Below are positions 8,901-41,900 of a stretch of DNA of 64,000 bases, in pieces. Origin of the DNA: Trileptium ribeirensis (Eukaryota > Nematoda > Enoplea > Enoplida > Thoracostomopsidae); the NCBI GenBank assembly GCA_030248225.1, contig JASANE010028637.1, positions 1-64,000 of the forward strand. Reading direction: 5' to 3'. A program made the translations under genes and the position numbers. The notes beneath the pieces were generated by a model. The model worked only from the letters and a program-made list of their open reading frames with translations. It had not been told where the DNA came from and searched no databases. How positions within the stretch are numbered: the stretch's first letter is position 1; every line of letters starts with the position of its first letter.

Positions 8901-11900
8901 TATTCAGAATTTGACGTTTATGAAAATTTATTGCTATATATCAAAACCATTAGAATTTCTGATAATGCAACGCAGACACACATGCAATTGTTTGAAAACT
9001 GGGTCATGTAACAAAATTCTGTGTTTATATTTTTTCCTGCCCAATAAATTTCTGCATCATAAAATCACATGGCTTTGGAAAGTAGTGTAAAATGAGTACG
9101 AGAAGTCAAGAAATTTTATGCTTCGTAGTGTTTCCATTCTCATTTGAAATGCAAGAACATTAACAGCAACGACAACGTTTATTATCCATACATTTTTGCC
9201 ACCTCTATGACGCAGGCAGTAATGTTTAATAAATCCATTTTGGGGTATCCGAATCGATATATATATATTTAATTATTGTGCCTTTTGTACCATGAAAGGT
9301 AATGATGGAATGGTCAGGTGATAATAATAACCCATATTAATGATCAGTTGTTTAATGATACTGCTATAATAATATAGTAACTTGAAATTGTAAGCGGTAC
9401 GGTTACAATCAGAATTAAGTGTTTGTAAAATCGAATGCAGACGAAATCGAACGAAAACGCAATCGATCGATCTTCGTTTAAATCAAATTCGTTGAATTAA
9501 ACGCAAACTAACATTTTTATTATTAAATCATTTTTCTCTATTTCAACACAATTGAAATTCGTTAAAATAAACGCGAACTAACATTTTTTGTTAAATCATT
9601 TTTCTTTATTTTGACGCATGTAAATTCGTTAAATTAATCGATTTTCTTTTAAAATCGATTTTTGTTTAAACGCAAACAATCGAAATCGAACGAAGCTTCG
9701 ATCGATTTTTGAGCACTTAATTCTGATTGTAACTGTAGTTAATGGATATATAACGCGTATACTTGAGTATCTTCAATAAAACGGTGTAATCAGTAAAGAA
9801 GCAAACGTGGTGGCAACTGATTACAGTAGCACTATATCATGAATTACAACCTCACTAATAATTGATAAGTACTGTTTTAAAATCGTTACTGTGCGTTTAC
9901 GGATCATGGCCGGTACGGTGTGTGTTGTGTCGGTATTACCTATCGCTGACAACGCTGTGGTGTACACAGAGCTTCCGTCAGTGTACGGGGGAGCGCAGGT
10001 GTAGCGCATGTTTGGATCTGTACTATATATTTTTGTATACTCCACACATGCTTTAGCTGTAGATAAATAAGGTAAACAACAATCCTTTCCAATGTGGGGA
10101 AGGGCTCAGGGGCACGTCCTTCTACCTTTCTATGTGCATGTAATGCCCTGACACCCAGTACACTCACATACAATGTAAGTTGCATATAAAGTCACGTGGA
10201 AAATGCTCTAATGACGGACACAGTTGAATGAAATTGTTTTTTCCGTGTTCAGATGTAATTCTGTGCGACTCCGTCTGTCTGTATCGGGGCGAAGCTGCGT
10301 TTGTTCTTGACCAGACGAAATTGCATCCGCCCCTATCCAGACGGAATTGCTTCCGTCTACGTTCAGGCACTCGTCTACCTTTCCGTATGTCATCGTTTGG
10401 CCGCGTTATACTCATGTTTACACGTCTACAATGTAAATTATATACAGATTATTTATAAATTTCAGAACAACTACATCAAAACTTCGAAGTATAACATGAT
10501 AACATTTTTGCCAAAGAATTTGTTCGAGCAGTTCCAGCGTTTGGCCAACTTCTATTTTTTAATCCTGATGATTTTGCAGGTGAGTTGTTTAGCATTAATG
10601 TACAAACTCCAATATGAATACATTATTACGTGAGAAAAGTGAATAATATAATATATAATCATACGTGTCAAAGGTCTGTCGGCTTGGGTGTTATAGACTG
10701 TCGGGCGGAGGTGGGTAGACCCCCAGCCCTCAACCAATATTTCTGTCAAACTTACCTATTACTTACCGTCTCAATTTTGTAAAGTTATACTTACATTTTT
10801 TCGGCTGCGTAGCCTTCAGCTGAAGGTAAATATGGCTTGGGGGGTCCGTTCCTTAGGGTGTAACTCATACCCCCTATCGACACCTATGACATACTATAGG
10901 TATTTTTTGAAAGGGTTTGTGGATATAATAGATGTGCCAACAGCTGTTCTCTGATTTCTAGCCGTATTATCATGGCTGCGCAACATGCATCAAGTACACT
11001 GAAACTGTTTGGCCCATACTTTCAAGCTCTTTGTTCTTTAACAGAAAGGACGCTAATTAATAACATTGCCTATGTAACATGTTTCTTAAAAAAGATTTAC
11101 TAATAAAAACGTATGACGCAGTATTTTGTTCTTAACGAAAAGACTACTGCAAGTCGTGAACGTGATAACTTGAATAGCGCAAGCTGAAGGTCAAAATAAT
11201 TTTAAAGTCGTCTATTATTAAGAGTTGTTCTGACTTAGGGTGTATAAATCGGAACGGCTTCGAGTTTTGCCAATTTAAATCGGACTTTGTTAAAAATTTG
11301 GCCACAATTGATTTGGCGCTAAAATGTTTTACATCAGATTTGTCTGCTTGTATGGTGGGTTGCGGTATAATTTCATCCACAAAACGTATGAAATTTGCTG
11401 CACGAGTTGTTTGGCTTTGGTGGTTTTCTTACATTTTGCGAGTGAAATAGGAATACACAGTTAGCCTGCTTTGAAACGACACTTTGGCACCGCATTAATT
11501 TCAACCAAATTCCTTCGAGAACATCGGATTCAAACAAGCTCTACCTGAGTAAGCCGATTTAAACAACTCGTTTTAAATCTGGAAAGTTTAATGTCGATCG
11601 GATTTCACGTCAAAACGGCTTTTAATTTTATCTATCTGGGTGGGTATACTGGGTTTTTCAGTTAACCCTTAGCTTGAAATTGGTCAATTTTGAAGATACA
11701 GTGGTAAATAAAATTTCGTTTCGATCATTTTTAATAATTTTTTTCAGTTCCCAATGAATCATCCATTCCTAACCAAAACTGACAAGCTGAGTGGAATGGT
11801 GGTAAAATCAGTTGACAGGTTAATCAGTTATTTCCAGTTATGTGAAATCCTAAGGCTAAGCTCAAGTCGTATGAGCACCATTTTCAGTATCATTGGGATC

Positions 11901-17900: not shown

Positions 17901-20900
17901 GGACTTATGCGCCAAAGTTTGCCAATCTGTACCATCCCGACTGGAGAAATGCATTCAGCTTGGCGCTGCACAGACGGAGCTGTTCTGAGATCTATCTTCG
18001 TAATGTAAGTAAACTTTTAATTTTTGTCTATAATTTTATAAAAAACTGGCGAGCTACCAGTCAACCGATAGTTAGCATCAAACAGTGGGTAATTACTTCT
18101 GAAACACCCTGTACAAAACTGTAGTAACAAAAATATATAACAAAAAGTATATACAAAACTGTAGTAACAAGGTCGAAATATTTCCTTCTGGCCTTGAGCA
18201 GCAGTAGCCGGCTCCAGCTGGTCATGAGTTAACTTACTGTAAAACAAGTTATGTGCGATAATTTGTTAAAATGTCTGAGATCCACTACGAACTGGATCAA
18301 GCTGATTTCAACATCTCATTAATACGTCTCGAACGGTATATAATATGGGTATGGATAACTTATTGAAAAATTATTTCGGCACCGTTGAGGGAAATGAAAT
18401 AGAATTAAATGAAATAAAATGAAATGTCAAATCAAGTGAAAAACAAATAATAATTTACAGAAGTCGTAAAAAATAGCACAAACATGTCTGGCTTAATAGA
18501 TATTTTCTTATCTTTTTTTAATAGATATTTTCCGATCCGTCTAGGTGAGTCGAATGGTATCAATTTGCCGCTGCTTTTTCAAAATTGACAGATTTCGAGT
18601 TTTTAGCTGGAGAGTCACTAAGGCTAAGCGCTTTACGATTCAGTGTACCTACCAGCTTATTGTTGTCTACCAAAAGTATTTACGTAACTAATAACTACGT
18701 AAATATATCTTAAAAATAGCTTTCTGAGGTTTTATGTAAATGTGTGTACATTTTGTTTATACATGTCAAAATCTGTTTGTACGACGAATCGCGCCATATT
18801 TTTAAAGGAACATTCCCGATTATTCTTGTTAACTGTGATGGCTTAGTTTTTGATCAGAAACTAGGATCACGACGAAGATATTATAGTTGAACAACAAAGC
18901 ATACTGATGAGCTACTTCGTTGATTCCTTGAATTCGACTTGTCGGCTGCTCCATGGTTTGGTCATTTTCCATTATCCCCGTCATTCGGGCCGAAATTGGT
19001 CAAATTTGAAGATACAGCGATAAATTTGTAACCTAACGACTCAGCCGATTTGTTCGAACCGGTTAAGAAAATGACCATTTCGGCCACATTTATGTCAATT
19101 TTTTTCTACTTTTGGGCCCCCGATGGCTAACGGCATGGCCTTAGGCTTAGGATTTCACATAGATGGAACTAATTACTCACCCTTGAACCGAGTCCGCTTA
19201 TTTTACCACCGTTCGACTCGGCATGTCAATGTGGCTCGAATGATATATCAGTTATATATACATTTTTGAGAAATTTTTTAATCAAAATTTTTGAGTGTTG
19301 ACTGAGGGAAAACGCAGATGTATATATATAACCAAAATTGATATTTTCTGAACAGTGTGGTCGAATTGAGTCGATTCATGCTAAAATAGTTGCCTTATCT
19401 CCGAAACTGACCAATTTATGGCTGGGGGACGGGCAAAAGACAACTGTTTTGCCAGAGCCAACTTTAGTATATTTTTGTTACGGTTCAGACAAAAGAACTG
19501 TGGTATATATAGTAGGTTGTCGTAGCAAATCTTGACGTGATAATCAGTACTTCTTGGCGATAGATCAAATCAAGATCATAAGAAACTTCATACTACGTAA
19601 TTTAAAGAATTTAAACTTTCATACTACGTAATTTAAAGAATTTCGGTTAAATGATCGACATCGGACGTTCTGAGCTGTGGTTTTTTCTTCTTCTGATTAT
19701 AACCTCTAGGCATTTGCAGACAAAGCAATACTTTAAAGTAGCTGCACAGCGATGTTCAAATTAAATTTTTTTCCCGCAGTCGTGTTCGCGTGGTATTTTT
19801 CACATTTATTTCAAATGTATTTTTGTAATTTGCCGTTTTGTGATTATGAGGACAGCTCTAGTGATTAAGCAGTTTCAGCAAGATTGAGTAGGTTGAGATA
19901 TTTTCAACCAAGGATCTCCTGTAGTTTTTTATCTTCATGTAATGTTCGTTTCAAAACATGATTGGAGTTTCTTATTTTTGTTGTTGTACTCAAGAAGGGA
20001 GTTTTAATGTTTTATGTCAACTACGCCGTATAATTTATATTTACGCAGTTGGAACTACTAACTGGCCGAATGTATAGCGAAGCCATTTCGAAAATCTTGT
20101 GCTACAGTGCGTATGTCAGTTGTAGATTAATTTTGTTGACAGTTCATTTTACTGCCGATTTAATGCCTGCAGTTTGGAAACAAACAATTACACTTCAAAC
20201 CTTGTGTTAACCACTTTCGACGTGTACTAAGTGTTGGATTCGATCACGGTTCGGCGTTTATTATTGTTAGGTCGCTTTACGTACAGACTTAAGGATCAGA
20301 ACAATAGCTTTGTGGCTGGTGAACGTGACTTGGAGTCAATCAGGCTCTATTGTTCGCGGCGTTGTATATATGTCCATCTTTATATACGCGAATTTGTTTG
20401 ATAAAGAGCATAAACGGTTATATAAATATTTTTTGGGCTGCTGGGTTATTGCCATTCATTATGCGCTTCTACATCGATATTGTACATATTTTGTGCATTT
20501 CTTGCGATATTTAACTCTAGCAATATGGTTGTTAATACTCATTATTTTCGCTGCTACTTTTAATTGACATTTATTTACAGCTTATACCTCAAATATCGTC
20601 GCTGACAGCGCTAACTACAATACTGCCTCTGTGCGCCGTGCTTCTTGTAACGGCGCTTAAAGACGCTGTTGACGATGTCGTAAGTTGCTGTACTGATCGA
20701 GCGGATTCAGGACGCTCGTGTTATTTAAATATTGTTTGTTAACCGCCGGTGGATTCCACCATGTGCATGTCCAATACTCAGATTGAATGCGCATGCCTAG
20801 TACCCACTGCTAATATACGTAATAGCTATGTAACCGTGTTAACCGTATTGTGACGCATGTGTTATGCGATTAGTGTTTAGTACAATATCACTAACTGTAA

Positions 20901-23900
20901 CAATATTAACACTGTGTCGTCTGCATATATATGTACATAAAATACTTGGTGCCATGGAATGCATAAATGACTACATAAACCTGTTGTACATGTAAATATT
21001 ATTGTTAATTCGATTGTTCTTGCATTTTATGCATGAAATTGCATGCTTTCTGATCGTGTTACGCGGCAGTTCTTCGGTTTTGTGCCAAAATACTCCGTTA
21101 ATTTTTCCAATTTTCATTATTGTTTTCGAAAAAACAAACACTCTGGTGGTGACGAAAACTCAAAATCAATTGGCAGTAATTTTGCGGTGTCTATTATCTG
21201 CAACGCATGTCATATAGTACATGAAAATGTGGCTTTCGCGTAACATCACAAAATTAATTTATCACTCTATATACGTACGTATATATGTTAATTTGTCATT
21301 TGCGTGTAATTTTTATAATTGTATACATATTTTTTTGCGTTACAGAGCCAATTATATTTATAGTTACACATTTACATTCGAAGCTTGCGAAGATAGTGGA
21401 TTTGATGAACGTTTTATAACACGGATATTAAGTTGACGTGACTCATGTTTCGATGTCAAACAGATGTTTCGCTAGCTGGCATCCCGCACATACCTTATTA
21501 GTAGTATATATATAGTACATACTAAAATATTTGATGTACATAAATTCTCAATTATAAACTACTCCAATATCTGATTTGGAAGAACGTCGGCTGTCGTCAC
21601 TGGTCAAAGCCACCAGCAGTCGGCTGTCGTAGCACGTGCTCAGCAAAAATGCGTTGACATTCCACGCAGTGTATAATTTTTGGCCCTCAATGCCCTCAAA
21701 TCATTGAAAAAGACACGTATAACTTGATTAAAAACATGTAGCCCTGGTTTGGCTTCTACAATCCTAGTCTGGGTATTACTGCGAATATAATCTTTCGTTA
21801 AGACCTCAGTATTCATGATTGTTATGAAGTATTGCCTTTCCTTTGCCTATATACGTATGATCATGTGTTTGTCTATTATTAGTTTGTCGAATCCTCCGCT
21901 TAGTCGCTGTACCACGACTATATATTGTGTTTGTGCTCAACAGCCGAAACCTGAGTTTTAGAATTAAATTTCAAGCCAAACCTTAGGGGTGCAAAGAAAT
22001 TACATACATTTACCTACTGAGACATAACTTCTGAATTTTACCAAGAACAGTGACCGTATTTTAGATTGGGATAAAGCTAGTCATGACTAACGAACCTGCA
22101 GTGCATTTAGCAGCGATAGCGATCCTGATAGTTTGCAGCCCATCAGAGCGACAAAACCCTGGAAATATGCTTGAATAAAATCGCACCAGTACATCTGGAA
22201 AATTTTAGTAATTTGTAGAAATTTTCATGACGTTGAAAATTTACGGTTCATTCAAAACCACTAAATTCGGGAAGTTCTGTTATGCATCGGCAACACGACC
22301 ATTTACTTCGTCCACACATCAATTATGTAATCCTTCTCGCATCAATAGGCATACATTATATATGGGGATGTCCAGAATATTGGGTATTCGGCCGAATAAT
22401 AGGTATTCATTTTTTGGCCGAATACCGAATAGTTACTTGTAACGTATTTTTGAAATTTTTATCTCGCAAGGCATAAAATGCGCAATAAGTTAATAATTGG
22501 TCAACCGTTTGTTAAAGTAAGGTAGATTATTGTTGGAGACAAACTTGGCGCCTAAACTCAACCAAAACTGGAAGAGAAAGAGAGCTCTGTTGTGTGTTAC
22601 CTTGCCACATTTTTGAATACGTATAAATGAGAGTTCATAGTCAATATCAGGAAATTTTTAAGTCGCTATAATTTATCAACTTTTAGAATAAATAAATATA
22701 CGTATGTTGTTCTGCATTGTCAGTACATACGGAACGAAGCGATCGTATTCTTCAATCGTACTGTCCGTCCACCAAAGTGTAAAGTTTCGCAGTACGTGGT
22801 GTATATACAGGTTCGTGCAATGTGGCTATTTACCTACTTAAATCCAACACAACGCGGCATCAAACTTCCGAACGGAATCTAATACAGGATGAATTATTTT
22901 TGTAATACAGGTAATGCTAAGAACCACTTCAGCACCAGTCACCATTTAATGATTACAGTCTGTGTGTAACCGGTTTTGTACGATATATATTAATTAGTTT
23001 AGTATATATACTTGATTGAGCGGAGCGAGGCGAAGCCGAGCGAAGCGTTTTTATTTTCTGTCTGTGACCTAAAAAGTCGATGTCCGTTCGTTCGTTCGGT
23101 CCGACGGATCTCAAGAACCACTGAACCGATTTAAATTTTTTTTTGTTTGAAAGCCTGTCATGTCAGAGTGCGCACCTGATATTTGGGATCAAAAATTTTG
23201 AGTGGTTAATTAGTAATTAGTTAAGCTTATGCAGCTAAAATAGAGAATTTTGCAATATTTGTGTTATATATTTATTGAAATAGAATCGTTTCGATCAAAC
23301 CATTATAGGTTTTTCGGGGTCGAAGAATTCAAATATAATATTTTTACCAATGATACAGCCCTATGCCCTATGCAATGTAGTTGAAGAACATAAAATTGAG
23401 TACATTCGTAATGCCCCAGCCGAAGCTCCGCTCGCAAATGCAGTTCCACTACCAACTTAGTCGCAATTACTGTGTGTTCATATTGCATCTGATCCCATAG
23501 AGCAAGTACAATTTTCTCGGATTCGGATTGGATGATGTAGTGCGAAAAAATACTTTCAGACACGTATAACGTATGAAATGTGATCACAAATCGAGTCGGA
23601 CGCAATTTGAGAACGGCCTTACAATTTAATAGTACATAAAAAATTTCACAACGGCAAGAAATTGCTAGTCTTTAGAATTTCGGGTTACACCAAAGTTCGT
23701 TTTAGTATATAAAACTGAACCTTGAAGAGAAGTGTATATATATCGTAGGGCTTGTTGTAAAAGTCTCTACGGGCAGGGGATTGTTTTCAAAATTTGCACG
23801 TGTATGATGGTTACAGAAAATACTTATTTTAGAAGTTGTTTTAATTCCAACAATCATGTTAGCTGCGAACAAATTTTATTGGAACGGCACGCGTTTTAAG

Positions 23901-26900
23901 CCGAAGGGCATTAGACCGCAGTAAAAACAATCCATCAATTTTGCTATAAACGCATCAAAACATAATATTCCTACCCCTTGCATCATACAAAAATCATATT
24001 TTGGATCGCATAATGTTGTCCTCAACGGAATCGTTGTATTTGATCGATGTGTGGATGTTTTTATAGTGTGTAAGCGCTAATTCGGACCTAGTTATTTTTG
24101 CTGAAGAATATCATTGTTTGAACGCTGAACTCAGCTAATTCTTATCACCAATCGCAACTTCTACATTACACAATATATACGTACTTTGACAATTATATTT
24201 ATTATTATTGATTGAATAGACATGGCGAAGGTTACAGTGGTCGTAAACAATTTTGCTAAAAACACTGTATTTTTACTAATTCTATTCTGCGGGTTTTGAT
24301 CGATTCCTACTGGTTCAGCTATAATCCGAACGTAGAAACTGTGTGATTATAAATATGTATACTATCCGCAACATAGGTAATTGAAAATGTGTTGGCTAGC
24401 GTTTGAAACAAGGACATGGAAGAATTTTGTGAGCAGTATTCAATGTCGACATCGAAATATTTTGTTTGAAGAACTGTATCACGCGGCACATTTCGTTGTT
24501 GTACACCGCAGTAATTGAATAGAATAATGCTTAACAGAATTAACAAGGACATGGGAGAATTTTGTGAGCAGTATTCAATGTCGACATCGAAATATTTTGT
24601 TTGAAGAACTGTATCACGCGGCATATTTCGTTGTTGTACACCGCAGTAATTGAATAGAATAGTGCTTAACAGAATTAACAAGGGCATGGAAGAATTTTGT
24701 GAGCAGTATTCAATGTCGACATCGAAATATTTTGTTTGAAGAACTGTATCACGCGGCACATTTCGTTGTTGTACACCGTAGTAATTGAATAGAATAATGC
24801 TTAACAGAATTAACAAGGACATGGAAGAATTTTGTGAGCAGTATTCAATGTCGACATCGAAATATTTTGTTTGAAGAACTGTATCACGCGGCACATTTCG
24901 TTGTTGTACACCGTAGTAATTGAATAGAATAATGCTTAACAGAATTAACAAGGACATGGAAGAATTTTGTGAGCAGTATTCAATGTCGACATCGAAATAT
25001 TTTGTTTGAAGAACTGTATCACGCGGCACATTTCGTTGTTGTACACCGCAGTAATTGAATAGAATAATGCTTAACAGAATTAACAAGGACATGGAAGAAT
25101 TTCGTGAGCAGTATTCAATGTCGACATCGAAATATTTTGTTTGAAGAACTGTATCACGCGGCACATTTCGTTGTTGTACACCGCAGTAATTGAATAGAAT
25201 AATGCTTAACAGAATTAACACTCGATGTCGATAGTATAAATATATATAAGAATATATGTCTAAAGTTTTGATATTTTTGGTATGTAATACTTCCGAAGAG
25301 ATATAGATAAACCTGAAACAAAACGTACAGCTCTATATATTTTCTAAACTTTTCTATAGTTTTGCAAGCATTTTGCTGGCGCCAAGCCCAACTATACAGT
25401 AGAATGACATATATGTTGATACCTGTTCCTAAACACATAGAATTTTGTAGTTAGTGCCACTGATATCTTCGCTATCGCCATGGACCACAATTCTGCCTCT
25501 TGGATTCGTGCTACTTATGTCCGGTGTGAAAGATGGATTTGACGACTTAGTGAGTTGTAAAAATTTGCGATACACATTTGGGAACTCGGCGAGAAGCAAA
25601 ATTTATATAGCTAAAACTTTTCATTTCAGTGCTTTCTGCTACTGCTCGGTGTCAAGGATAGCGGAGTTTTGTAATACTATGCTGTGCTATTTTTGTTTAA
25701 TCTATTTAAACGTTGTCCAAATTGTTGCTGCGATTTGATAAAGCAGGCCATTGGTTCTAACAGTGCTTTAACGGTACAGCTGCTTTTCCCAGTTACCAGA
25801 TGATTACATTGCTTAATTAGAGCTAGCTACTTTCATGGCTTTAAAATCTAAGATCCATGTTGACTATTAAGCTGCGGTATTTATTTTGTAAACGACTAAC
25901 TGTTTGGTGCTGATTTTGGCAATTTATTTATATATGTTTTGTAAAGTGAAAACGATGTTATGTGCCGGATTTTTTTTAAATTTCTTTGCGGAAACAACCA
26001 TTGTTTTCGTCTTAGCTAAACTACAGTTAAAGGAAAATGTCATTACAATGTCGCTAGGTTGGCCGATGTTACCTCCAGTAGACTAATGATATCCGGATAG
26101 TATTTCATAGCCAATTATTATGCGTGACGTCCTGATATTGCATTTCGTGGCCAGGGGCAACATTTTACTGGTTTATATAGTAAACCCGTGAAGCGAGCAT
26201 TTAGAAACAAATATGGTTTTCTATGGCCTTTTGGGAAGACGTGATGTTGTTGGATTAACATATTGTAACTTTAGGCGGTCGATTTTAATGTTTACTATAT
26301 TTGCCGTATGCCAAGGCGACGGAGGCGTTTCATTTGATCGTCTCGGGGTACCGGTTTGTTGGAAATCAAAACTACATAAGCACAGATTTTTTCATCTTTT
26401 CACCGTAGACAAATTTATGATACGGTGTTTCTAGTTGCAGTCATAATGTATTTCCATACAGATCTGCACTCCCTAATTAACCGACGTTTTATTTTTAGGG
26501 AATTATTAATTTGAGCTGAATTCTAACCGAAAAATTCACCGAGATTTTGCATTTTCTGAACTTAACAGGCTGTTGAGACTCACAGATTTTGATTTTTTTT
26601 ATTATATATATATATCGATATTTCAGAATTCTACTTTTGGTGTTGCAGCTTATAATATGAATTAGTTGAAATAAAAACATCCGCCATGTAGCCGTGTATA
26701 AATGTGCTCATGATATTTATCTCATCATTGCTTGACGTGTTTTTGTGAGCATACTGGTCCTATTTTGGTATTTTAACCGATTTCTCTTTGAGTCAAAATA
26801 TCTTGCAAACCACAAACGAATCCGCCGTGTATAATTGTGCTCATGATATTTATCTCATCATAGCCTGCCGTGTTTTTGTGAACACACTGGTCCTATTTTG

Positions 26901-29900
26901 GTATTTTTAGCGATTTCTCTTTGAGTTAAAATATCTTACGATCCATAAAAAAATCCGCCGTGTAGCCGTGTATACATGTGCTCATGATATTTATCTCATC
27001 ATAGCCTGACGTGTTTTTGTGAACACTGATCCTATTTTGGTATTTTTAACGATTTCTCTTTGAGTTAAAATATCTTGCGATACACAAAAAACTTGATAAT
27101 ATGCCACAAGACGTTTTGGTATTTACGATACATAAGATCAAAATCAGTTAATTATTGCAGTGAATGTTTTTTTACAATTCCTGTAGCTCTACGAATCTTC
27201 CTTAATGGATATTCCTTAGAATAATTGTGAGATGCTGCGCCAGAACACTCAGTCTCTGCTATGTCGAACGATCGAATATAAAGCACTGAACATATGAATG
27301 TTTTTAACAGATGAACAATAATTCTAATAATTCAGAACATATACTGAGGATAAACGTTTCTAAAACCCATCCGCTATATAACTATGGCTATGGTAACGTG
27401 ACAGCATACGCCATGTTTATATATAAAAGTACTGACTGTTATAGCAGCTTGTCATAATTGGAGTACAACACTTAAAAAGTGCAACTTAATCAGTTTTCCC
27501 TTTAATCCGGAGCAACAGAATTTCCAATGCTTCTGTCCAATAACTTATACACCATATGCTTACTAAAACACTGCGATAGGAAACACAGTGACATTGGCTT
27601 ATTCTTAATACGCTGGTACATTCACTGTCTCCCTTCCTGAGGAAGTCGACTGGATTTAGACATCCGCATCAAAACTACTTCTAATTTTAACTATTATACG
27701 CGCTCTTTTTTCGCAGCAGTCAGACAAATTTTACGCATGGATACATAGTGGAAAATATTTCGTCGTTCTGGTATATTGTTAAAACCGGAAACGTATCATG
27801 CCGGTCGAATAAAACAACGATCGATTTTTAGCTTAAATAAACACTTTCCAATTTTACTTAATGAAAATACTATCACTATACTAAAATGTATTGAGACGGG
27901 TTTTCAGCATATTTCTTACACCATTTATTTTTATTACTTATAGACTGGCAATACATGTTTCGTTTAAAAGTAACGGGGCTGGCTCCACTTACTCAGTGAT
28001 GTCCGTTAACCTGAATACGAAGTTTACTGAGTAAATTTCAACATAAGCTAAACTATTGTCAAGGTATATATGACGGTGTTAAAGTTTGTCTTCCTTTGGG
28101 TTTAAACAGTAGAATTGACTTTCTAGTCCATTATTTGACGTGTTATTAGAGTAAATGGTAAATGCCATAGACACCCTGTGTGAGGCTGGGAGCCTCTTTC
28201 AAGGAATTTTGAGACGGGGTAACGACCATCTTTGTGCGAAGCAGTGCAATATGGAGTGTAGGGGCAACGGCTGTTTAGAGTGTGGGTTGCGACAGCTATT
28301 TGAATTTTTTCAAAAATTTTCATTTAAAGAAAATATCTGATTATCCATATTCAGTATTACCTTCTCAGGAACAAAAAAGTAGAGTTTTGCGTTGCAGCAA
28401 TTAACCTTAAATTACAACTTCGCAGCAACTCGTGGTTCTGAGCTTAACTACGTGCAGTATTTTGTTCGAGGGGGGGTTCGCTGCTCACAATCATGAGGTT
28501 AAAAGAGAACCTGTCTTATGTGAATGGAAATTTGATTTCAGTCGATTCATCGGTTCTCCAATTAACTAAATTTCAAATCAATACTTAATTAATATTTTAA
28601 TTATTTTGACTGAACAGGTCATACACAAAGCTAAATCGCATCACAACGAAAAACCATTATAACATAAATCGCTGATCCTACTATTCGTTTGATCTTTGAC
28701 TGTGCAGCCGCGTTAGCATTTGACAAAACATTGGCTGAAATAAAAACCTACGTACAGCATAGTTTCGAGTTATAATTCCAATTCAGTGATAGCTGGTTCT
28801 CGGATGACATCAGGTTCATATTTTTTAATCCGATACGGTCTCATATATATACTATACTATCAATATTCACGACTGCTTGTTTTTGCGTACCCAACACATC
28901 TTTAAGAGCTTATTGAAATTAATGTTTATTCCAATCTACCCTGTTGCCACTTCTGTTACTAACAAAGGTAATAACGAAGGCGTGTACTTGTATTCTAACA
29001 TTGAGGCTGCGGCCCCTCTTCATATGCACTATCATTGGGTTTAGTTGTCTTTTCGTATAGAATTTGTCTGTATAGTCTTTAATATGATGATAGGTTTGCC
29101 ACACAGATATTGTGTACGATAAATCTTTGTTAAAATTGTTACAAGAAATGTGATCTTTTTGTATTTGCAGTAAATAATTGTCGCCGCAACCTCTTTGCTA
29201 AACTCTGGATAACAATGAAATATTTATTTTTGCCGTTAAAATTTGCGATACCTTCTCACGAGTCTCAAACGACAGTATCCCTGGGCCAAGTGAAATGAGT
29301 TGTTGGGTTACAGTAAGATAATAAAATCAAACTCTTCCGTCTTAGCACTCATTGTAATAGATCCAGCTAATAATATGCACCTAATATCGGTATCTGGTAG
29401 CGTTGTTACTCACAGGGAATTCTAATATTCATACATGGCTTTTGAGTGTGCCTGAAGCATGCATTGTGCTGCCGTAGCATTCCAGTTGTCCTGCCTATAA
29501 ATAAAATACGGTAGCGAATTTTGAATTTTCAGTTGATTCAATGTATATTAACCTCAGCTGTGTTTCGGTCGACTACATCTATATAATGTGATTTTAATTT
29601 AGCTTACTAATACTGCATGGACATAATATTTTCCATTTGCATGTACTAACTAACACACGATAGTATTGATATTTTTTTATTTAAATACTTCGAAGCTTTG
29701 TTTTTGTCTTTATGCTTAACCTATAATTGACAGTCGTTGCGTGACGACCAACATTGGCCAGACACCCTACTTGTCTATCTCATTCGTCAGTGTCGAGCAA
29801 AAACTTACCAGCTTTTACAGAGCCGATAGACCGTGTCGTAATCGAAGAACTGAATAATTGATAACAAACATTGAATTGTATAGAGTTAAAATTATTTACA

Positions 29901-32900
29901 TGACAAACCTCTTTTTTCAATGGTAGACGATGTTATGTTTACATGACGTATGCGGGAAACAGCTTAATGTAAATATATGTGTATGTATATATGTTAAAAG
30001 GTGCTAAATAAAAACTAAATAGAGTTAAAAGATGTATTGATGAATTTATAAACATGTATGATCGATCTGGTGCATGGCTAATATAAAGCACAAACAGGCA
30101 ATAAATTCGAGCTTCAGTTGTTGATTATTTGTGAAATATTGTGGCATGATGCTGCTATTGGTTATGAAGCGTTGGCATGTGCACGCTGGGTGACGATGTT
30201 AATTGATTGTGTGTTATGTGCATATGCATGTCAATTAAAAAACTGAATAACTAATCTAATCACATGTAGTGTTTTATACATACACGGAAATGTGGGAGAG
30301 CCAGAGGTCCAAGAATTGGTATAAATAAAGTTATGGCAAGCTGGTAAAGTTTTTTTCAAAATGGTGAGGACATTATTTGGAGCTTTGCGGTAATATGCTC
30401 CCAAGACCGAAAATGTATATCTTAACTGCTATAACGATGATTTTTTTTACCATTCGAATCAGCTCGGCGAGCTGGTTCATAAAATGTCCATTTCAACCAC
30501 CTTTTAATTTTTTTTATTTTTTACTCAGGGTTAAATTTGTATAGTCATCCTTTATTAAAATTTATGGGTTCCGATTTGACTTCAATGTCTTGTGTTATTT
30601 CACCGCCACAGCTATATATATATATTTCTATGTATATAATAATAACGGGGCCGTTAACTTTGCAATAAATTACAATTATTGATAATCACGTTTTTGTTGA
30701 TACTACCTATTACAGCTCATTCCTGTAATTTCATCTTTGACTCCATGGACAACAATTATTCCGTTGGCAGGAGTGATTTCATTAAGCGCACTTAAGGATT
30801 TGATGGACGATATTGTAAGTCTTGTGTCAGAGTGCGCTATATTATGTGCGTGTGTTTGGTACACAGCTTTTGGTTTCCTCGCCACCACGCTTCTATATGT
30901 AGCTTGTGTCAATTGACTAAATGTACCGGTGGAGTATACCTGCATGTAGGAAGAGGGGAATATCCCTGAGGCGTCGGATCCTCCTCGACAGGTTCCACGA
31001 CCCCACCTCCCTGAGTTTCCGTCCTCGCTACGCGAAGGCGCGCGAACAATATCAGCAATAATTGATTTAATCGAAGAAAATTGCCATAAATTTGGAAACA
31101 TTTTGAGTACCGAAAAATTTTGGAAGATTTATACACCGAACCGCTGATCCCGCCTAGGACCTCGAACCTCATACATATTAGGTGTGAATCCATTTCAGTT
31201 GCATTAGATATTAGATCTAGCGTCATGCTTGATAGTAATGGCCCTTACTTTTTTTTAAATTTACGAGAACATTTGTACATAATATGAACTTTTACCGCAA
31301 GTAATTTCTTAAAATTTTGTTGAAATATTATCAGCAAGATTGTTCTCGGCACGCATTGCCGTTCGATTGTTCTGTAGATATATATGTCTTCTGTATAAAT
31401 ATTTTGTGGTGTGGCTTTTCGGTGCTCATTTTGTTCTACTATGTCACTTTGTGCTCATCTATATTTATTGTGGCTTGCAATCTCATCTATATTTATTGTC
31501 GCTTGCAATAATCGGTAATCAACAGTGTAACAGGAGTTTCCTCTTTTACGTTTACTAAATACTAAGGTAAGTGAAATGTTCAGATTGCTTGTTTACACAG
31601 TCAGCCAGCACAAGATTTATTACCTAGCTACTGCGTTTACGTACTCAGCTTGATGCTTTGTTTTTGCAGCAATCTGTCAAAGTATTATTTGTAAGTAATA
31701 CAACGTTGTTATTTCAAATCTCATCATTTTTTGATGGCAAAATACTACTAACATAATCGAGCTAGATTTAAACTTTTGTAGAAAATAGCTTCGTTTTCAA
31801 AAATGAGGCAGTGCCATCCTCTTGGTTTTCACGAGACGAAAAACTTGCAAGTCCTTTGACGAACAAGAAAAATACTGCAAAATTATGACTTTAGGTGGTT
31901 TCTTCGCGGGTGTGTACGTAACAAGCATTTTAATAAACTTTTAGTATATACTATATGCAGCTGCTGTGAAAACCAATAAGCTCGCTGTTTGCGTCATACA
32001 AGATAATGAAGGTTCTAGATCTTATTATAGCCGTATAATTAATAGAGGCGAGAATGAGACAAATTTTCGAAATCTACCTTTGGCTCTTCATCAGTCATGT
32101 CCGCCACGATTGTTTCAATGGAAAGCCAGGCTCGGCTCTTGAGATCAGAATAGTAATATTTTGCGATACAATAATCTAGCAAACCAACAAACGAACTATA
32201 TATATATAGTTACTTTTAAAGCTTCCAACAACCGAGTTAAAGTTATTTCGACTGTTGTTGCTGTGCGGACTATTGTACTATGCATCAGTTACAATTATTT
32301 TCGCTGTTTTAGAAAACAGCTTTTAAGAGCGGACCACAGCTTTTGCAACCACACTAGGTTGGACTTGGCTCTCATAGACAGTGCTTAGGCTTGGCTCGGC
32401 TCTTCAGACATGTTCCTGGTCGGCTATAGAGCCGAACAGGGTCTATCCTAGAGCATAAATTGCCACTATTAATTAGTTAAATCTTATCGACGTTGCAGTA
32501 CTTAGCCTTTTACTGTGTGTTTCATTATAAATAACTTCATTTTTTGTTGCGTCTTTCAATTTCGTAAGAAAAGTTTTTTAAGATTACCATGCCAATAGAA
32601 ACATATTATACATCGATCATTTAAAGACAACTACGTTTGTATATTACTTTTATATATATATATATGTATTTTTTGGTAAACAAATAAAACGACAGAAACG
32701 TATTGTACGTTTGAGATTTGGTCCTCGAGGGGACGTACATACTGCGTAAAATAAGTTTAATACGTTTCAGCAAAGCAACTGAAGTATTATGACTCAATTT
32801 GTATTTAATAAATAACTAGTACTGTGGCGGGGATCAGGAAAAGAGGTCATGGAACATTTTAATTCTTTTGGAGTGTAGTCATTGACTGATTAAGCAGACT

Positions 32901-35900: not shown

Positions 35901-38900
35901 TGTTCCATTACTTAGCAATAGTAGAGGATGTATTAGTTTTTACGCTTTGGATTGAATTTGTTTTTGATTTGATACTTTGTCATCGTTCGCAAAATTAAAA
36001 TTTCTATGCTCAACATTTTAATGAACAAATTTTGTGACATCTGAGTTTTAACCTATACCTATTACAATATTATAAAACTTTGTGTAATATATACATTCGT
36101 ATTACAAGTATAGGTTTTACAAAAATTGTAGCGCAAAGTACATAATATTTTGTTGTAAACTAAGTGAACTGTCCAAAATTATGTTCTAAATTTTAATCTA
36201 CGCAACTTTCAATAATATAAACTTGAGGCTTATCATGCATCCACGGTATTGCGAAGCATTTTCGTACTATAATAATATTCTGGTTGTAATACCGCTATGA
36301 ATTATATATATATACGCTTTGCACAGATACGTAATGTGTAGCATTGGCCAAATATGTTCTACAGAAATTGTACGACGTATTATAATCTTTGATAACTTTC
36401 ATATCCTGTCCTACAAGCTTATTAAAATGGCTATAGGTCATATGAAATACACAGAACACTGCACAAAATGGATTTGTGGTAATATAATGCAAGTTTTAGC
36501 CATGGTTCACATACTGAAATATTCTAGTACGGCACATTATGCTCAGTGGCTGATTATACGTCATTATGTATTTTTGTATAATACCAAATGTCAAAATTTG
36601 GGTCAAACCAGTCTCGGTACCAGACTTTTAGTTGTACGAACACCAATGAATATATAATAGAACAATAATAATTCATTGTTGTATTTCACAATTTTAATGA
36701 AAGGATTTCACAAGAATTATTTGTTGTATGAAACATACGTATTCATATTTGTATTTAAGTGAGCTCATATATCAGGACATAGTATTATACAACGCACTTA
36801 AAGAATATTGGATAACTGAATTTGTAAATGTACCGCAACAAATGAAGTTGTTGACCTAACCTGTATTATATTTATAAACTTGTGAACATTTGAAATTGAA
36901 ACACACTTTTAAATATTGCACGCCAGAAAAATAATGAAATGTCCTGTTTGTACCATAAAGGCACAGGCGGAACGGTATTAAAAAGCGCTTTGGCTGAAAA
37001 ATGGTTAAATTACTAAATTAGCATTATATAAGATGTTATGTATTGTAAGTATTTTTAAATTCGAAAATTTTATTTAACTATAGCAACATTTAACAATCTG
37101 CTACTTTTCAGCAGTATTTTATTAAAAGCGAGTCTTGGTTGGAATATCTGACTAAAATATTAATATATATAAATTTTAGCAACGGCATCGGAGCGACCGT
37201 CAGGTAAACAATCGAAAGTCGTACGTTGTGCGCGGCGGAAAATTAGTCGAAGAAAAATGGCAACACGTTAAAGTTGGCGATGTGATTCGAATGGAAAACG
37301 ATCATTTTGTTGCGGTAAGGATCAATTTTCTATGGTTATCATTGCGGCACTCGTGTGCTATATACCTCTACAGTAATCAACGATGAATAATGTATATATT
37401 TAGAAGAAAGAACAGTCTAGAGAGGTAGCTCGGGAAACGGCAACCCCCACTTAGTTTTAGGCTTAGTGTAAGCCTAATAAAAATATGAAACTTAGGCTAA
37501 GTCTTAGGCTACCGATAACGGTATATCTAGTTCTTCACTGTTAGTGGGTTACAGTACAGGTTTATTGCAACCAGTGCCGATCAGTATAGTATACGGCTTG
37601 CGCTAGGAATGATTATTGCATTTTGAGTATACCATAGCCCTACTCGAAGTTTTCGGAGTAATTAACATAAATAAAATTCTATGTTCGAACTAACTGCTTT
37701 AAAACGTGCCGCGAGTGAGCAGCGGCGTTCATTTTTGGTGAGCACTGTATATCTAGGTGTGCGTTTATGGAACAGTGTGAACCATTATCATTTACGCGGA
37801 GTCGTAAAAGGTTTATTTAAATAAAATTTTATCCTTGAATTGTAATTTATTATTTGACAATAATTATAATTACGAAGAAAATATTATACACGATATTATT
37901 TATAAAAGATAAAATGTATCCGATTAATAAAATCGAGCACATATTGTCGCATCGTACGTCAAATACATAAGAACTCGTTAATGGTTAACTATGTTTTAGT
38001 TTTAGAACTTGCGGTAAAATCATAATCAATTTCTTTTTTGGATTGGCTGGTTCCGACAGCTCGGTGATTCTGCCTAGTTTTTCCTTAACATATTTTAACT
38101 TTTCCCCATTTTTCTCAAATTTGTAATTTTGCTCATAACTGATAAAAATTTTCCGCAGCGCCTTCGAAGCGCGGGATGGGTGTGGTGGGGATGGGGCAAA
38201 ATATCGCTAAGAGGAGCTCTTTAGGGAGGATAACACCTTTGTTGGCATCTATGGCTTATATGTCTTATAACATTGTTATTAATTACAGTATGATCCTTGC
38301 TATATTTTTGTACAATATTACACATAACAGTTTTATTTGTCTAACAATATTAGATTATTTTTTCTTGCGAGTGTTTTGTGTAAAGCAGTTGTTTTATAAC
38401 TGGTCGTTGTGGGTATCTGGAAACTGTGCAATGAATTACTTCGAACTTTTTTGTTGCAGTGTGAACGGTCTGCACTGTATTTCTATAGAATCTTGGACCT
38501 TTGTTACTTTTTGTTTTAGGCTGACTTGTTGCTGCTGAGCTCTAGCGAACCTCATGGCTTATGCTACATAGAAACAGCGGAGTTAGACGGGTGAGCGTGT
38601 GTTAACAAAACGTTGTAATCCGTTACAGACAAATTCGCGTTTTTCATTGTATTTGTTGTGTCGTTGACTGAGGAATCATTTTTTAATTGTGACTACCTCT
38701 AAAATATCGGTGCTACACATACATGAATCTAGGATTTGATTTGTGTAGTATAGCAATCAATGTAGTTTTCTTAACTATGGCTTAAAATAATGTAGTCGTC
38801 TGCTTTATTTCAGGTTCATTTTTTCATGGATGCAGTAAGTGATACGCTTGGTCGGAGTAATACCTAAACCATCTTCGGAATCGAAATATTAATAAAATTC

Positions 38901-41900
38901 TGCTCTTTAAACCATAACGGAATACATTAATCACGGGTGCGAAAAATAGCGCGTATAATGTCAAACCATCATAATCATAACATGAAAGCTATGCGGGATT
39001 TGTACGACCATCTTCAACTTAAATCCGAAGCCGAACCTTCGTATTATTAAGTGTAAAGCTGAGAACTGTACTCTAACTTAGAAGGCAAGCTATGTAGCCA
39101 AGGGATGAGGTTGTGAACGGCAATGGCGGACGACGAATATGGGTGTAATGCACTAATGTTTCAGATCTAATGTTCTTTTCGCTGTTGGGTACTAACGGAA
39201 TTGATGCATTTGAAATGTAATTTATTATCGACTCGTTGTTGCGATAGTTTTAGAAAACGATTTATTGACACCTTTTGCAGATTTCTATGGCGGCAAAAGG
39301 AGGGAGGACCAGAAAGTCTTAGCGTCGGAAGCTTTTTCGTGAGAACGATAATGCATTTCGTTAGTGCCTGCGCAATACTTTTGGTTTCGCTTTGTTGCCT
39401 CCCTATAACTTAAGAAGCTGCTAATTAGTATACGTATGACATATTATGCCTTATTGTTGTTAGCTCAGTTTCTACTCTGACAACGAGATGTACTAGTAGG
39501 TACACAATCTGTTGGCTATAATTTATGTTTTGTGACAAATTTGAAAATTGTATTAACGACTTGATATGTAACCATTCGTACAAACGCAGTATCTTCGTAT
39601 TTATTTCAGAGAAACTAATCTAAAGGCCAAACAAGCATTACCAGTGACGTCCAGCATGGGTGACGATATAAAGAAAATTAGCCAGTTCAAAAGTCAGTCT
39701 ATGCGATAGATACTAAAGGCATAACGCGGCAATATATAGAATTAATAATGTTTTATTCTATCGCTTGATGGCAAATTACAGTGCGAATGTTTGTAGACTC
39801 AGTCGTTTATCATGTAATTTATTCTCTAACTTGAGTGTTTTGATTTAATGGAAACGAATCTTCACTTATTTGCTCATTAATATCACAGAAAAGAGTATTA
39901 ATAATTTGACAAGTTTGATTTATGGAATTCGGTATATAAATAAAGTGAATGAAGTTCCAACTGTTCTGAAAAGCTTTTATTATCGTGTTGAATTTGTGAT
40001 TACAACGAATACAGAACAGGCATATTAGTTGCAGACGAAAACAGTTACAATTGAGTAGTGTTTTTTGCCACATTGTGCTAATATTATTATGTTACAGGCA
40101 CCAACAGATGTAAGTGCTCAAAAAAATGTATTCAGACAGACGAAATTGCATCAGTCATCGTTTTCTTCCGCCTGCTTCTTCGCTTGCATTTGTCCGTGAC
40201 TGCACAATGCAGCACATAACATGTTTTAATGTGTTCTAATATTGTCACCATGTACATTGTGACTGCGTGTATCTGGGCTCTCCAAATTGGGGGGGGGTGG
40301 GGCACTGGTTTTTCGGTTCCCCCTGGTTCAGAACAGGTGTCCTCTGGGTCATGCCCGTGCCAAACTTTTGGGCTCCCCCAGTACAGCGCCTCTTCGAAAA
40401 TGTTTTTGTTTCCAATCGGTCCAAAGTACATAAAATTTCATCAAAATTTGTACTAAAATTCCGTTCTGAAGCCAAAACTTTCGCAAATTTTGTCAAAATT
40501 TGCTTCAAAATACCTTTTTCTCTCCATCAAAACCATTTTGGCAGTGTTTCTGATACGATTTTTAACCGTTTTTCTATTGGAAAAATGCCCCTGGCAGATT
40601 TTTCAGCGAATGGAGAGCCCAGTGTACAATATTAGGTACTTCGTGTAATCATGTTGAATATGTTGTATCATAATATAGGATACTAACTGGTTGTTTTCCC
40701 GCTATTGTTGCTCCGTTTAACGTTAAGCTCACCATACGTATTAAACTCACGTGCATTTTGACATTACCGCTGAATATAAACTGTATTGTGTGCTAGCAAA
40801 GGGCCATTTTAAAGGTGGTATAGTTTTAATGATGGCTTGAATCAGTCAGCTAACTTAGCGTTTAGTCTTTATGATGCAATAATAATTTTTACAGGTGAAA
40901 TTATTTGCGAACCACCAAACAATCGACTCAATTCGTTTGACGGCAAACTTGTCAATCCCGACGACGAAGTGTTTGCGTTGGACAATGAAAAAATGCTTCT
41001 TCGTGGCTGTGTCCTTCGCAATACTAAGTGGTGCTACGGCGTGCGTGAATTACGGTTTATCTTTGTGAAAAATTACAGATTATTTGGACTAAATTTTAGT
41101 TGACATTTTAAAAAATATTCCGTAGCTTGGCCAAACATGTTTTTATGCTGGACAGTGAAAAAATACTTCATGGTTGTGTCTTTCGCAATACCAAATAGCG
41201 CCATGTCGTGCATAAATTGCAGTTTATCTTTTGATATGAATTCTAGAACGTGTGCTGCAATGTAGCTATATGCATTCTTTGTGATAACCTATATTCTGGC
41301 TTTTGTATTCGCTGAAATTTTTGCGAGGGGTCATGAACAGAGAGGGGTCTAGTTTGGAACTTTCAAGCGGCCATGAACTTCCTTACCCCTCCAGATGTTA
41401 AAATTTAAAAATTTTCAAAATATGTTCTTAGCGAAGAATGCTAACTTATTAATAAATGGCTTCAGAAATTTACCAAAAACGTCTTTTTCGAGTTAAAAAT
41501 AATTTTTAACCAAATTTTTTACATAAGTTAATCAATTTTTTAACCTCAATAAGGGATTTTTGTAAAAAAAATTATCAATGTACCAGCCTGGCGGCACTAG
41601 CCAAGGGTTACCAAAAATACCATTCCAGGCGCTTGGAAACGCTGGATATTTTGGTTTTGTGCGCAAGCGAGTTCAATATATAGACCGAAGGGTATATTTT
41701 TACTCAGCAAATTCATCTTATATTATACTATGCTTTGTAGCATTCACTTTCTTGTACTTTTTAATCTTCTATCAATTACAGTAAATGGTTAATATTGTGG
41801 CACATTTTTCAGGTTGTGATTTTCGCCGGGCGCGACACGAAGCTAATGCAGAATTCCGGGAAAACAAAGTTCAAACGAACGAGTCTCGATCGATTTTTAA

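What the first reader, a model, noticed from the sequence alone, without database searches (positions are those of the whole stretch)
20581..30814. Three homologous, equal-length, phase-0 exons for one flippase segment: likely mutually exclusive splicing
Seen directly: 20581-20679, 25451-25549 and 30716-30814 are each exactly 99 nt, open, phase 0-0, and flanked by AG and GTRAGT. All encode L(I/V)PxISSL(S/T)xxTTI(L/I)PLxxVxxxxxxKDxxDD, with 19-20 of 33 residues shared pairwise. Only one copy fits the protein between exon 2 (ending LILMILQ) and the exon at 37180 (starting QRHRSD). Divergence of about 40% with no stop, frameshift or lost splice site argues that all three are kept by selection. 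I know of no description of a three-way choice at this site in an ATP8B flippase, but I could not search.
Basis: partly seen in the sequence, partly recalled or inferred. Interest (0 to 1): 0.92.

Follow-up and report, generated by a model that had tools for sequence, protein, structure and literature searches.

The report
Three swappable exons in lipid flippase
An invertebrate lipid-flipping pump gene carries three ready-to-splice versions of the same 33-residue membrane segment next to its lipid entry gate, so one gene can probably make three pumps that differ just there.

Summary
Three 99-nt, phase 0-0 exons (20581-20679, 25451-25549, 30716-30814), bounded by AG and GTAAGT/GTGAGT, share 19-20 of 33 residues pairwise; profile search finds no fourth. 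The gene is a P4-ATPase closest to ATP8B1 among solved structures. The cassette matches ATP8B1 132-164: the TM1-TM2 turn and TM2. Its upstream junction directly follows the entry-gate glutamine (Drs2 Q237 / Dnf1 G230 / ATP11C Q79, by alignment positions). Differences sit mostly at third codon positions, and 0 of 12,000 neutral triples kept this protein similarity. A younger partial copy of exon 7 in the same gene is already dead. Two cassettes or none would change the number of membrane spans (inference), so one at a time is the likeliest use. Mutually exclusive splicing is thus well supported by anatomy, but no transcript and no orthologue could be examined. How the choice is made is open: the one strong intronic complementarity comes from a dispersed repeat and skips cassette 2. 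The kind of system is known; I found it described for no flippase in the papers searched.

The parts
10466..10579 (+). Constitutive exon 2 ([10 protein letters not shown]...LILMILQ): TM1; last codon CAG is the entry-gate glutamine
   Evidence: boundaries, GTGAGT donor; start-to-end positions put query Q38 at Drs2 237, Dnf1 230, ATP11C 79
20581..20679 (+). Cassette 1: [33 protein letters not shown]; closest to human ATP8B1 (20/33)
25451..25549 (+). Cassette 2: [33 protein letters not shown]; 15/33 to ATP8B1; poorest pyrimidine tract
30716..30814 (+). Cassette 3: [33 protein letters not shown]; 15/33 to ATP8B1
37180..37314 (+). Constitutive exon following the cassettes ([14 protein letters not shown]...): linker after TM2 and start of the A domain
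   Evidence: alignment
40894..41040 (+). Exon 7 ([12 protein letters not shown]...TKWCYG), parent of the dead partial copy used as internal contrast; ends read by eye
41139..41247 (+). Dead tandem copy of the 3' part of exon 7 and its donor region: one codon lost, in-frame TAG, donor GTGCGT now GTGCAT; 84 of 107 ungapped positions identical
44525..44686 (+). Exon with the DKTGTLTQ phosphorylation motif, identifying the gene as a P-type ATPase

Best explanation
A single ATP8B-type P4-ATPase (lipid flippase) gene has a cluster of three tandemly duplicated, mutually exclusive exons. Shown: three intact, homologous, equal-length, phase-matched exons that evolved under protein-level selection, between two constitutive exons. 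Inferred: each mRNA joins exon 2 to exactly one cassette and then to the exon at 37180, because a cassette carries the TM1-TM2 exoplasmic turn plus the whole of TM2. Two copies, or none, would change the number of membrane spans and misplace the A domain, although all such mRNAs stay in frame (99 nt), so nonsense-mediated decay cannot enforce the choice. Steric blocking and mixed spliceosomes are out (introns of 4.8 and 5.2 kb between cassettes, all GT-AG). Exclusion must then come from regulated splice-site pairing, by RNA-binding proteins or by competing RNA structures that I could not demonstrate. Consequence, inferred: the three proteins share the entry-gate Gln (in exon 2) and a headgroup-facing Thr (cassette position 13, ATP11C S91 equivalent), but differ in the turn (positions 4, 9-11) and in TM2 (18, 19, 21-26, 29, 30, 33). 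They most likely differ in groove width, gate movement or rate, and secondarily in lipid preference. Step probabilities: alternative use of all three 0.88; strictly exclusive 0.8; a change of lipid preference or kinetics of physiological weight 0.45.
For: Anatomy and frame. Three copies only. Selection: differences at codon positions 1/2/3 are 12/5/22, 13/7/22 and 16/6/24 of 33; dN 0.33, 0.35, 0.45; dS 2.3 for one pair, not estimable for two; 0 of 12,000 neutral triples match. Gene identity: the best 4 of 92 matching PDB sequences are ATPase IC (ATP8B1). Position in the fold: cassette = ATP8B1 132-164, junction directly after Drs2 Q237 / Dnf1 G230 / ATP11C Q79, a residue that decides PS recognition (PMC12424579, sections 7 and 9 read). 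TM1-2 encloses the lipid, and its distance from TM3-4 is held to set the broad specificity of ATP8B1 (PMC10657443, passages and section 10). Variable TM2 positions are helically clustered (permutation p 0.007, 0.012, 0.032 for three ranges). Internal contrast: dead exon-7 copy. Low base rate of non-exclusive look-alikes (PMC3228551). Three flippase paralogues of the same genome showed one TM1-2 exon each in the stretches fetched.
Against: No transcript or proteomic datum was available. The pyrimidine tract of cassette 2 (7 of 16) is poorer than any of 12 constitutive acceptors measured (8 to 14 of 16), which fits regulation but also decline; cassettes 1 and 3 (10 of 16) lie within that range. 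Cassettes 2 and 3 are less like human ATP8B1 (15/33) than cassette 1 (20/33). The residue nearest the headgroup (position 13) does not vary, so changed lipid selectivity is not compelled. No RNA architecture serving all three was found. dS is saturated, so this selection is past, not proven present. C. elegans flippases tat-1 to tat-3 have detected isoforms that differ at their ends, not here (PMC2572054, passages).
Confidence: 0.82

Rival explanations
1. One working exon (probably cassette 1) plus two old tandem duplicates that are no longer used.
For: Cassette 1 is closest to ATP8B1 (20/33 against 15/33); cassette 2 has the poorest pyrimidine tract of the 3 cassette and 12 constitutive acceptors measured; duplicated exon pieces do die in this very gene.
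Against: At 53-60 of 99 identical bases an unselected copy should have lost protein similarity and often carry stops; simulated triples reached a mean of at most 17 shared residues, against 19-20 observed. All six splice-site dinucleotides are intact. The exon-7 copy, at 84 of 107 identical positions and so younger, is already dead.
Confidence: 0.08
2. Cassettes are ordinary alternative cassettes that can be combined (two or three in one mRNA) or skipped.
For: Every combination keeps the frame (99 nt, phase 0-0), so nothing in the code forbids it.
Against: Each cassette holds one whole membrane span, so a combination or a skip changes the number of spans before the A domain (inference from the alignments). 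Look-alike exon sets that are not exclusive are rare (6 of 1,705 genes, PMC3228551).
Confidence: 0.05
3. A sub-question of the best explanation: the choice is made by competing RNA structures, a docking site pairing with a selector before each cassette, as in Dscam exon 6.
For: 11936-11983 is complementary to 30447-30494, 222 nt before cassette 3 (48 nt, 83%; duplex -72 kcal/mol, z -7.2 against 120 windows), and 11780-12021 to 18990-19228 upstream of cassette 1 (257 columns, 68%).
Against: No partner above background before cassette 2 (best -38). The segments are copies of a dispersed palindromic repeat, also found on this contig near 73.2 kb and on contig C10120, so the complementarity is expected without function. 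A scan of 638 docking windows, each against two flank sets, showed no clear outlier; it had no shuffled control and only 231 nt before cassette 2 were used.
Confidence: 0.2
4. A sub-question of the best explanation: the choice is made by tissue-specific RNA-binding proteins (RBFOX, CELF and the like), as in C. elegans unc-32.
For: TGCATG lies 85 nt after cassette 1 and 127 nt after cassette 3, none within 1.2 kb of cassette 2; within 300 nt downstream it is present at 2 of 3 cassettes and 1 of 21 other exons (some of those ends approximate). unc-32 exons 4a-4c and 7a-7b are a worked precedent (PMC3585155, passages).
Against: TGCATG ranks only 16th of 401 hexamers in local enrichment and its excess within 300 nt on both sides is not significant (p 0.12); the motif was picked after looking. 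The weak-acceptor argument holds for cassette 2 only, for which I lowered this from 0.5.
Confidence: 0.45

Closest known systems
C. elegans unc-32 (V-ATPase subunit gene), mutually exclusive exons 4a/4b/4c and 7a/7b (PMC3585155, passages)
   Same: Three interchangeable exons in one slot of a membrane ATPase gene; one chosen at a time
   Different: Other protein family and no lipid gate; there tissue factors are proven, here no factor is known
Fly mrp with eight interchangeable exons, and ion-channel clusters such as Ca-alpha1D (PMC9741552, passages)
   Same: Tandem duplicated exons substitute a segment of a membrane transporter or channel
   Different: ABC transporter and ion channels, not a P4-ATPase
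dATP8B / CG14741 of Drosophila and human ATP8B1 (PMC3961175, PMC10657443)
   Same: Same flippase subfamily and same TM1-TM2 segment
   Different: The dATP8B paper gives seven predicted isoforms and has no word beginning 'splic' in its main text. The main text of PMC9741552 (236 human events, 154 fly genes) has no 'flippase', 'ATP8' or 'ATP11'; its supplementary gene tables could not be read here
C. elegans tat-1 to tat-5 (PMC2572054, passages)
   Same: P4-ATPase genes with alternative splicing
   Different: Detected isoforms of tat-1 to tat-3 differ at the N or C termini, those of tat-5 at the start; no exclusive choice at TM1-TM2 is described in the passages
CG33298 of Drosophila, another P4-ATPase (PMC10790352 and PMC4174434, passages)
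   Same: Flippase gene with long-range intronic base pairing tied to splicing
   Different: Described as an RNA bridge, not as homologous exons at TM1-TM2; the original 2009 paper is not held

Membership tests
Mutually exclusive tandem-duplicated exon cluster | Same or similar length | tested here: met
   99 nt each
Mutually exclusive tandem-duplicated exon cluster | Same reading frame and compatible splice sites | tested here: met
   Phase 0-0, AG and GTRAGT at the three cassettes, fitting exon 2 and the exon at 37180
Mutually exclusive tandem-duplicated exon cluster | Sequence homology of the encoded segments | tested here: met
   19-20 of 33 identical, tblastn E 9e-11 to 3e-8
Mutually exclusive tandem-duplicated exon cluster | Exactly one exon per mature transcript | not testable with these tools
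   No RNA data held
Mutually exclusive tandem-duplicated exon cluster | Conservation of the cluster in relatives | not testable with these tools
P4-ATPase, ATP8B subfamily | DKTGT, DGET, PISL (TM4), TGDK and GDGANDV motifs | tested here: met
   [16 protein letters not shown] across two exons, [20 protein letters not shown]
P4-ATPase, ATP8B subfamily | Closest to ATP8B rather than to other P4-ATPases | tested here: met
   ATPase IC (ATP8B1) 1052 bits against 863 (6k7g) and 837 (DRS2); solved structures only, no tree built
Docking-site/selector RNA-structure control (Dscam type) | One docking site complementary to a selector at every alternative exon | tested here: not met
   Repeat-derived complementarity for cassettes 1 and 3 only; none above background for cassette 2. 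One genome only, so conservation was not tested
RBFOX-regulated exon | (U)GCAUG in the downstream intron close to the exon | tested here: inconclusive
   Present after cassettes 1 and 3, absent around 2; enrichment weak

The most novel reading that the evidence does not exclude
One flippase gene makes three pumps with different lipid preference or transport rate by swapping, through tissue-specific mutually exclusive splicing, precisely the gate segment that starts one residue after the specificity-setting glutamine: splice-coded control of membrane lipid asymmetry.
Probability: 0.35. Interest if true: 0.82.

Novelty: new member of a known kind. Interest (0 to 1): 0.6.

Why it matters
How P4-ATPases choose their lipid is still open and has been studied with point mutants and swaps of TM1-TM4 segments. 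Here a genome appears to have made the swap itself: three natural versions of the TM1-TM2 turn and TM2 in an otherwise identical protein. Expressing the three isoforms side by side would be a clean test of what this segment does, and would extend exon-swap control, known for ion channels and some transporters, to lipid flippases.

Tried and rejected
A fourth cassette: none. A second exclusive cluster in the gene: 21 exon peptides that I had identified (the first coding exon and at least one exon after the DKTGT exon were not found) were compared with the window; only exon 7 has a second hit, a dead partial copy. Homology between the introns flanking the cassettes: none at E 0.001 outside tandem arrays and a dispersed repeat. 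Docking/selector RNA structure: repeat-derived and missing cassette 2. Rfam families in the window: 0 at the gathering threshold. Transcript evidence from retrocopies: the 116-aa exon2-cassette1-exon4 query gave 12 matches in the own genome: 5 exons of this locus, 6 places in divergent flippases and one weak hit (E 0.92); none is a fused intronless copy. Naming the organism: only a decayed COX1-like stretch was found; a test with an insect-only family did not complete. Paper searches that gave nothing on exclusive exons in flippases: 20 of 40 papers listed; 0 papers; 15 of 16; 4 of 4; 0; 1 of 1; 15 of 519. General weakness of cassette acceptors, my first impression, did not survive measurement: only cassette 2 is below the constitutive range.

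Rows dropped: cassette matches with E of 0.5 or more were not printed. Biopython's YN00 gave no value for any pair and LWL85 for one pair only.
Full report
Observation. The three segments exist as described. Each is 99 nt, open, phase 0-0, preceded by AG and followed by GTAAGT, GTGAGT and GTAAGT. Residue identity is 19, 20 and 19 of 33; base identity 60, 57 and 53 of 99. A profile of the three, run on both strands of the 64 kb, gives these three places; the next hit is the reverse strand of cassette 3. Sensitive tblastn adds short weak hits, the best elsewhere at 61925-61966 with E 0.03.

The gene. Exon peptides along the plus strand assemble into a P-type ATPase with DKTGT, DGET, PISL, TGDK and GDGANDV motifs. 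Its best matches among solved structures are the four sequences named ATPase IC, that is human ATP8B1 (1049-1052 bits), ahead of 6k7g (863) and yeast DRS2 (837). The window is bases 1-64000 of contig C18833 (88,691 bases) of an assembly of 687 Mb in 20,229 contigs; among 14 scored candidates there was no second copy of this locus. A stretch with a DUF4817 domain, probably a mariner-like transposase (the label is recalled), lies in the first large intron.

What the cassette encodes. On ATP8B1 the cassette covers residues 132-164; the numbering of 8ox4 agrees with S403 of the PISL motif and W390 as named in PMC10657443. Exon 2 ends with the glutamine that the match coordinates place at Drs2 237, Dnf1 230 and ATP11C (6lkn) 79. 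This is read from start and end positions; letter-by-letter alignments were printed only for ATP8B1 and 6k7g. [quoted passage not shown] The exon junction thus splits the two-residue QQ/GA entry-gate motif: the first residue is constitutive, the second (Leu in all three) opens the cassette. Cassette position 13 falls on ATP11C 91, a serine that turns away to admit PC in the Q79E mutant (PMC12723151, passages); here it is Thr in all three. Variable positions are 2, 4, 9-11, 15, 18, 19, 21-26, 29, 30 and 33, and in TM2 they tend to one helical side (permutation p 0.007, 0.012 and 0.032 for three choices of range). So the nearest headgroup contact is kept while the turn and TM2 change. In ATP8B1 the distance of TM1-2 from TM3-4 is held to make the groove permissive (PMC10657443, passages), which makes groove width and gate movement the first things to expect to differ.

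Selection. Differences at codon positions 1, 2 and 3 are 12/5/22, 13/7/22 and 16/6/24 of 33. Nei-Gojobori dN is 0.33, 0.35 and 0.45; dS is 2.3 for one pair and not estimable for two. Neutral evolution of cassette sequences to four divergences gave 0 of 12,000 triples with no stop and at least 19 shared residues in every pair; the highest mean identity was 17; 192 to 397 of 3,000 triples per level had no stop, so open frames alone would not have been telling. Against ATP8B1, cassette 1 keeps 20/33 and cassettes 2 and 3 keep 15/33; exon 2, the exon at 37180 and the next one keep 27/38, 18/45 and 20/24. The copies are old and were kept as protein for long. The same gene offers a contrast: a tandem copy of part of exon 7 at 41139-41247, 84 of 107 ungapped positions identical, has lost a codon, gained TAG and lost its donor.

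Why one at a time. All combinations stay in frame, so decay of out-of-frame mRNA cannot impose the choice. Each cassette carries a complete TM2, so adding or omitting one changes the number of spans ahead of the A domain. This is inference from the fold, not a measurement. Exons annotated as something else rarely show equal length, phase and homology: 90 of 16,180 exons, 6 of 1,705 fly genes; of 65 exons predicted as exclusive by these criteria, 26 were annotated at the time (PMC3228551, passages).

How the choice might be made. The introns are 10.0, 4.8, 5.2 and 6.4 kb and all GT-AG, which leaves no room for steric crowding or mixed spliceosomes. Cassette 2 has 7 pyrimidines in the 16 positions before its acceptor, fewer than any of 12 constitutive acceptors measured (8-14); cassettes 1 and 3 have 10 and are ordinary. 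I looked for competing RNA structures. A 48-nt segment 1.4 kb after exon 2 pairs strongly with one 222 nt before cassette 3 (-72 kcal/mol, z -7.2), and its repeat relatives occur before cassette 1. Cassette 2 has no partner above background, and the segment is a dispersed palindromic repeat, also seen on this contig near 73.2 kb and on contig C10120. I do not count it as evidence. TGCATG lies shortly after cassettes 1 and 3 and not near cassette 2, but the excess is weak and was chosen after the fact. Protein-factor control as in unc-32 (PMC3585155, passages) is my first guess at 0.45, lowered from 0.5.

Known or new. Tandem exon substitution is a known and often ancient kind of splicing, rich in ion channels and transporters (PMC9741552, abstract and passages). 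I found no paper that describes it in a P4-ATPase: some of them capped lists, in an open-access library that lacks most subscription journals; supplementary tables were out of reach. In the same genome, the flippase paralogues on C14915, C10120 and C15558 showed a single TM1-2 exon in the stretches fetched; on C8983 none was found. Where both sides of the intron were seen (C14915, C10120) it lies a few residues further on than in this gene. Automated gene models of relatives may already carry the isoforms without comment.

Verdict. Observation confirmed; mutually exclusive splicing likely (0.8) but without transcripts; effect on lipid choice plausible and untested.

Noticed in passing
41139-41247: Partial tandem copy of exon 7 with one codon lost, an in-frame TAG and a damaged donor: a dead exon duplicate inside the same gene.
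   Followed up: yes
16929-17985: Transposase remnant in several frames inside the first large intron (DUF4817 above its Pfam cut-off, HTH_32 below it).
   Followed up: partly
11662-12033, 18990-19228, 30447-30521: Dispersed palindromic, MITE-like repeat with inverted ends; relatives also in L009 (9218-9308) and L012 (2-137). It creates strong intronic complementarity around cassettes 1 and 3.
   Followed up: partly
24407-25220: Six nearly identical 135-bp tandem copies that end 230 bases before cassette 2; one minus-strand frame is open through the array (337 codons, 24322-25332).
   Followed up: no
20764, 30941: TGCATG motifs 85 and 127 nt downstream of cassettes 1 and 3, none near cassette 2.
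   Followed up: partly
54387-54668: Open stretch that looks like the tail of a non-LTR retrotransposon (recalled resemblance; no Pfam match).
   Followed up: no
L017/L018 (G000:C17193 about 64.5-65.6 kb): Decayed COX1-like stretch with several stops, perhaps nuclear mitochondrial DNA; the only place matched by the COX1 family in the assembly.
   Followed up: partly
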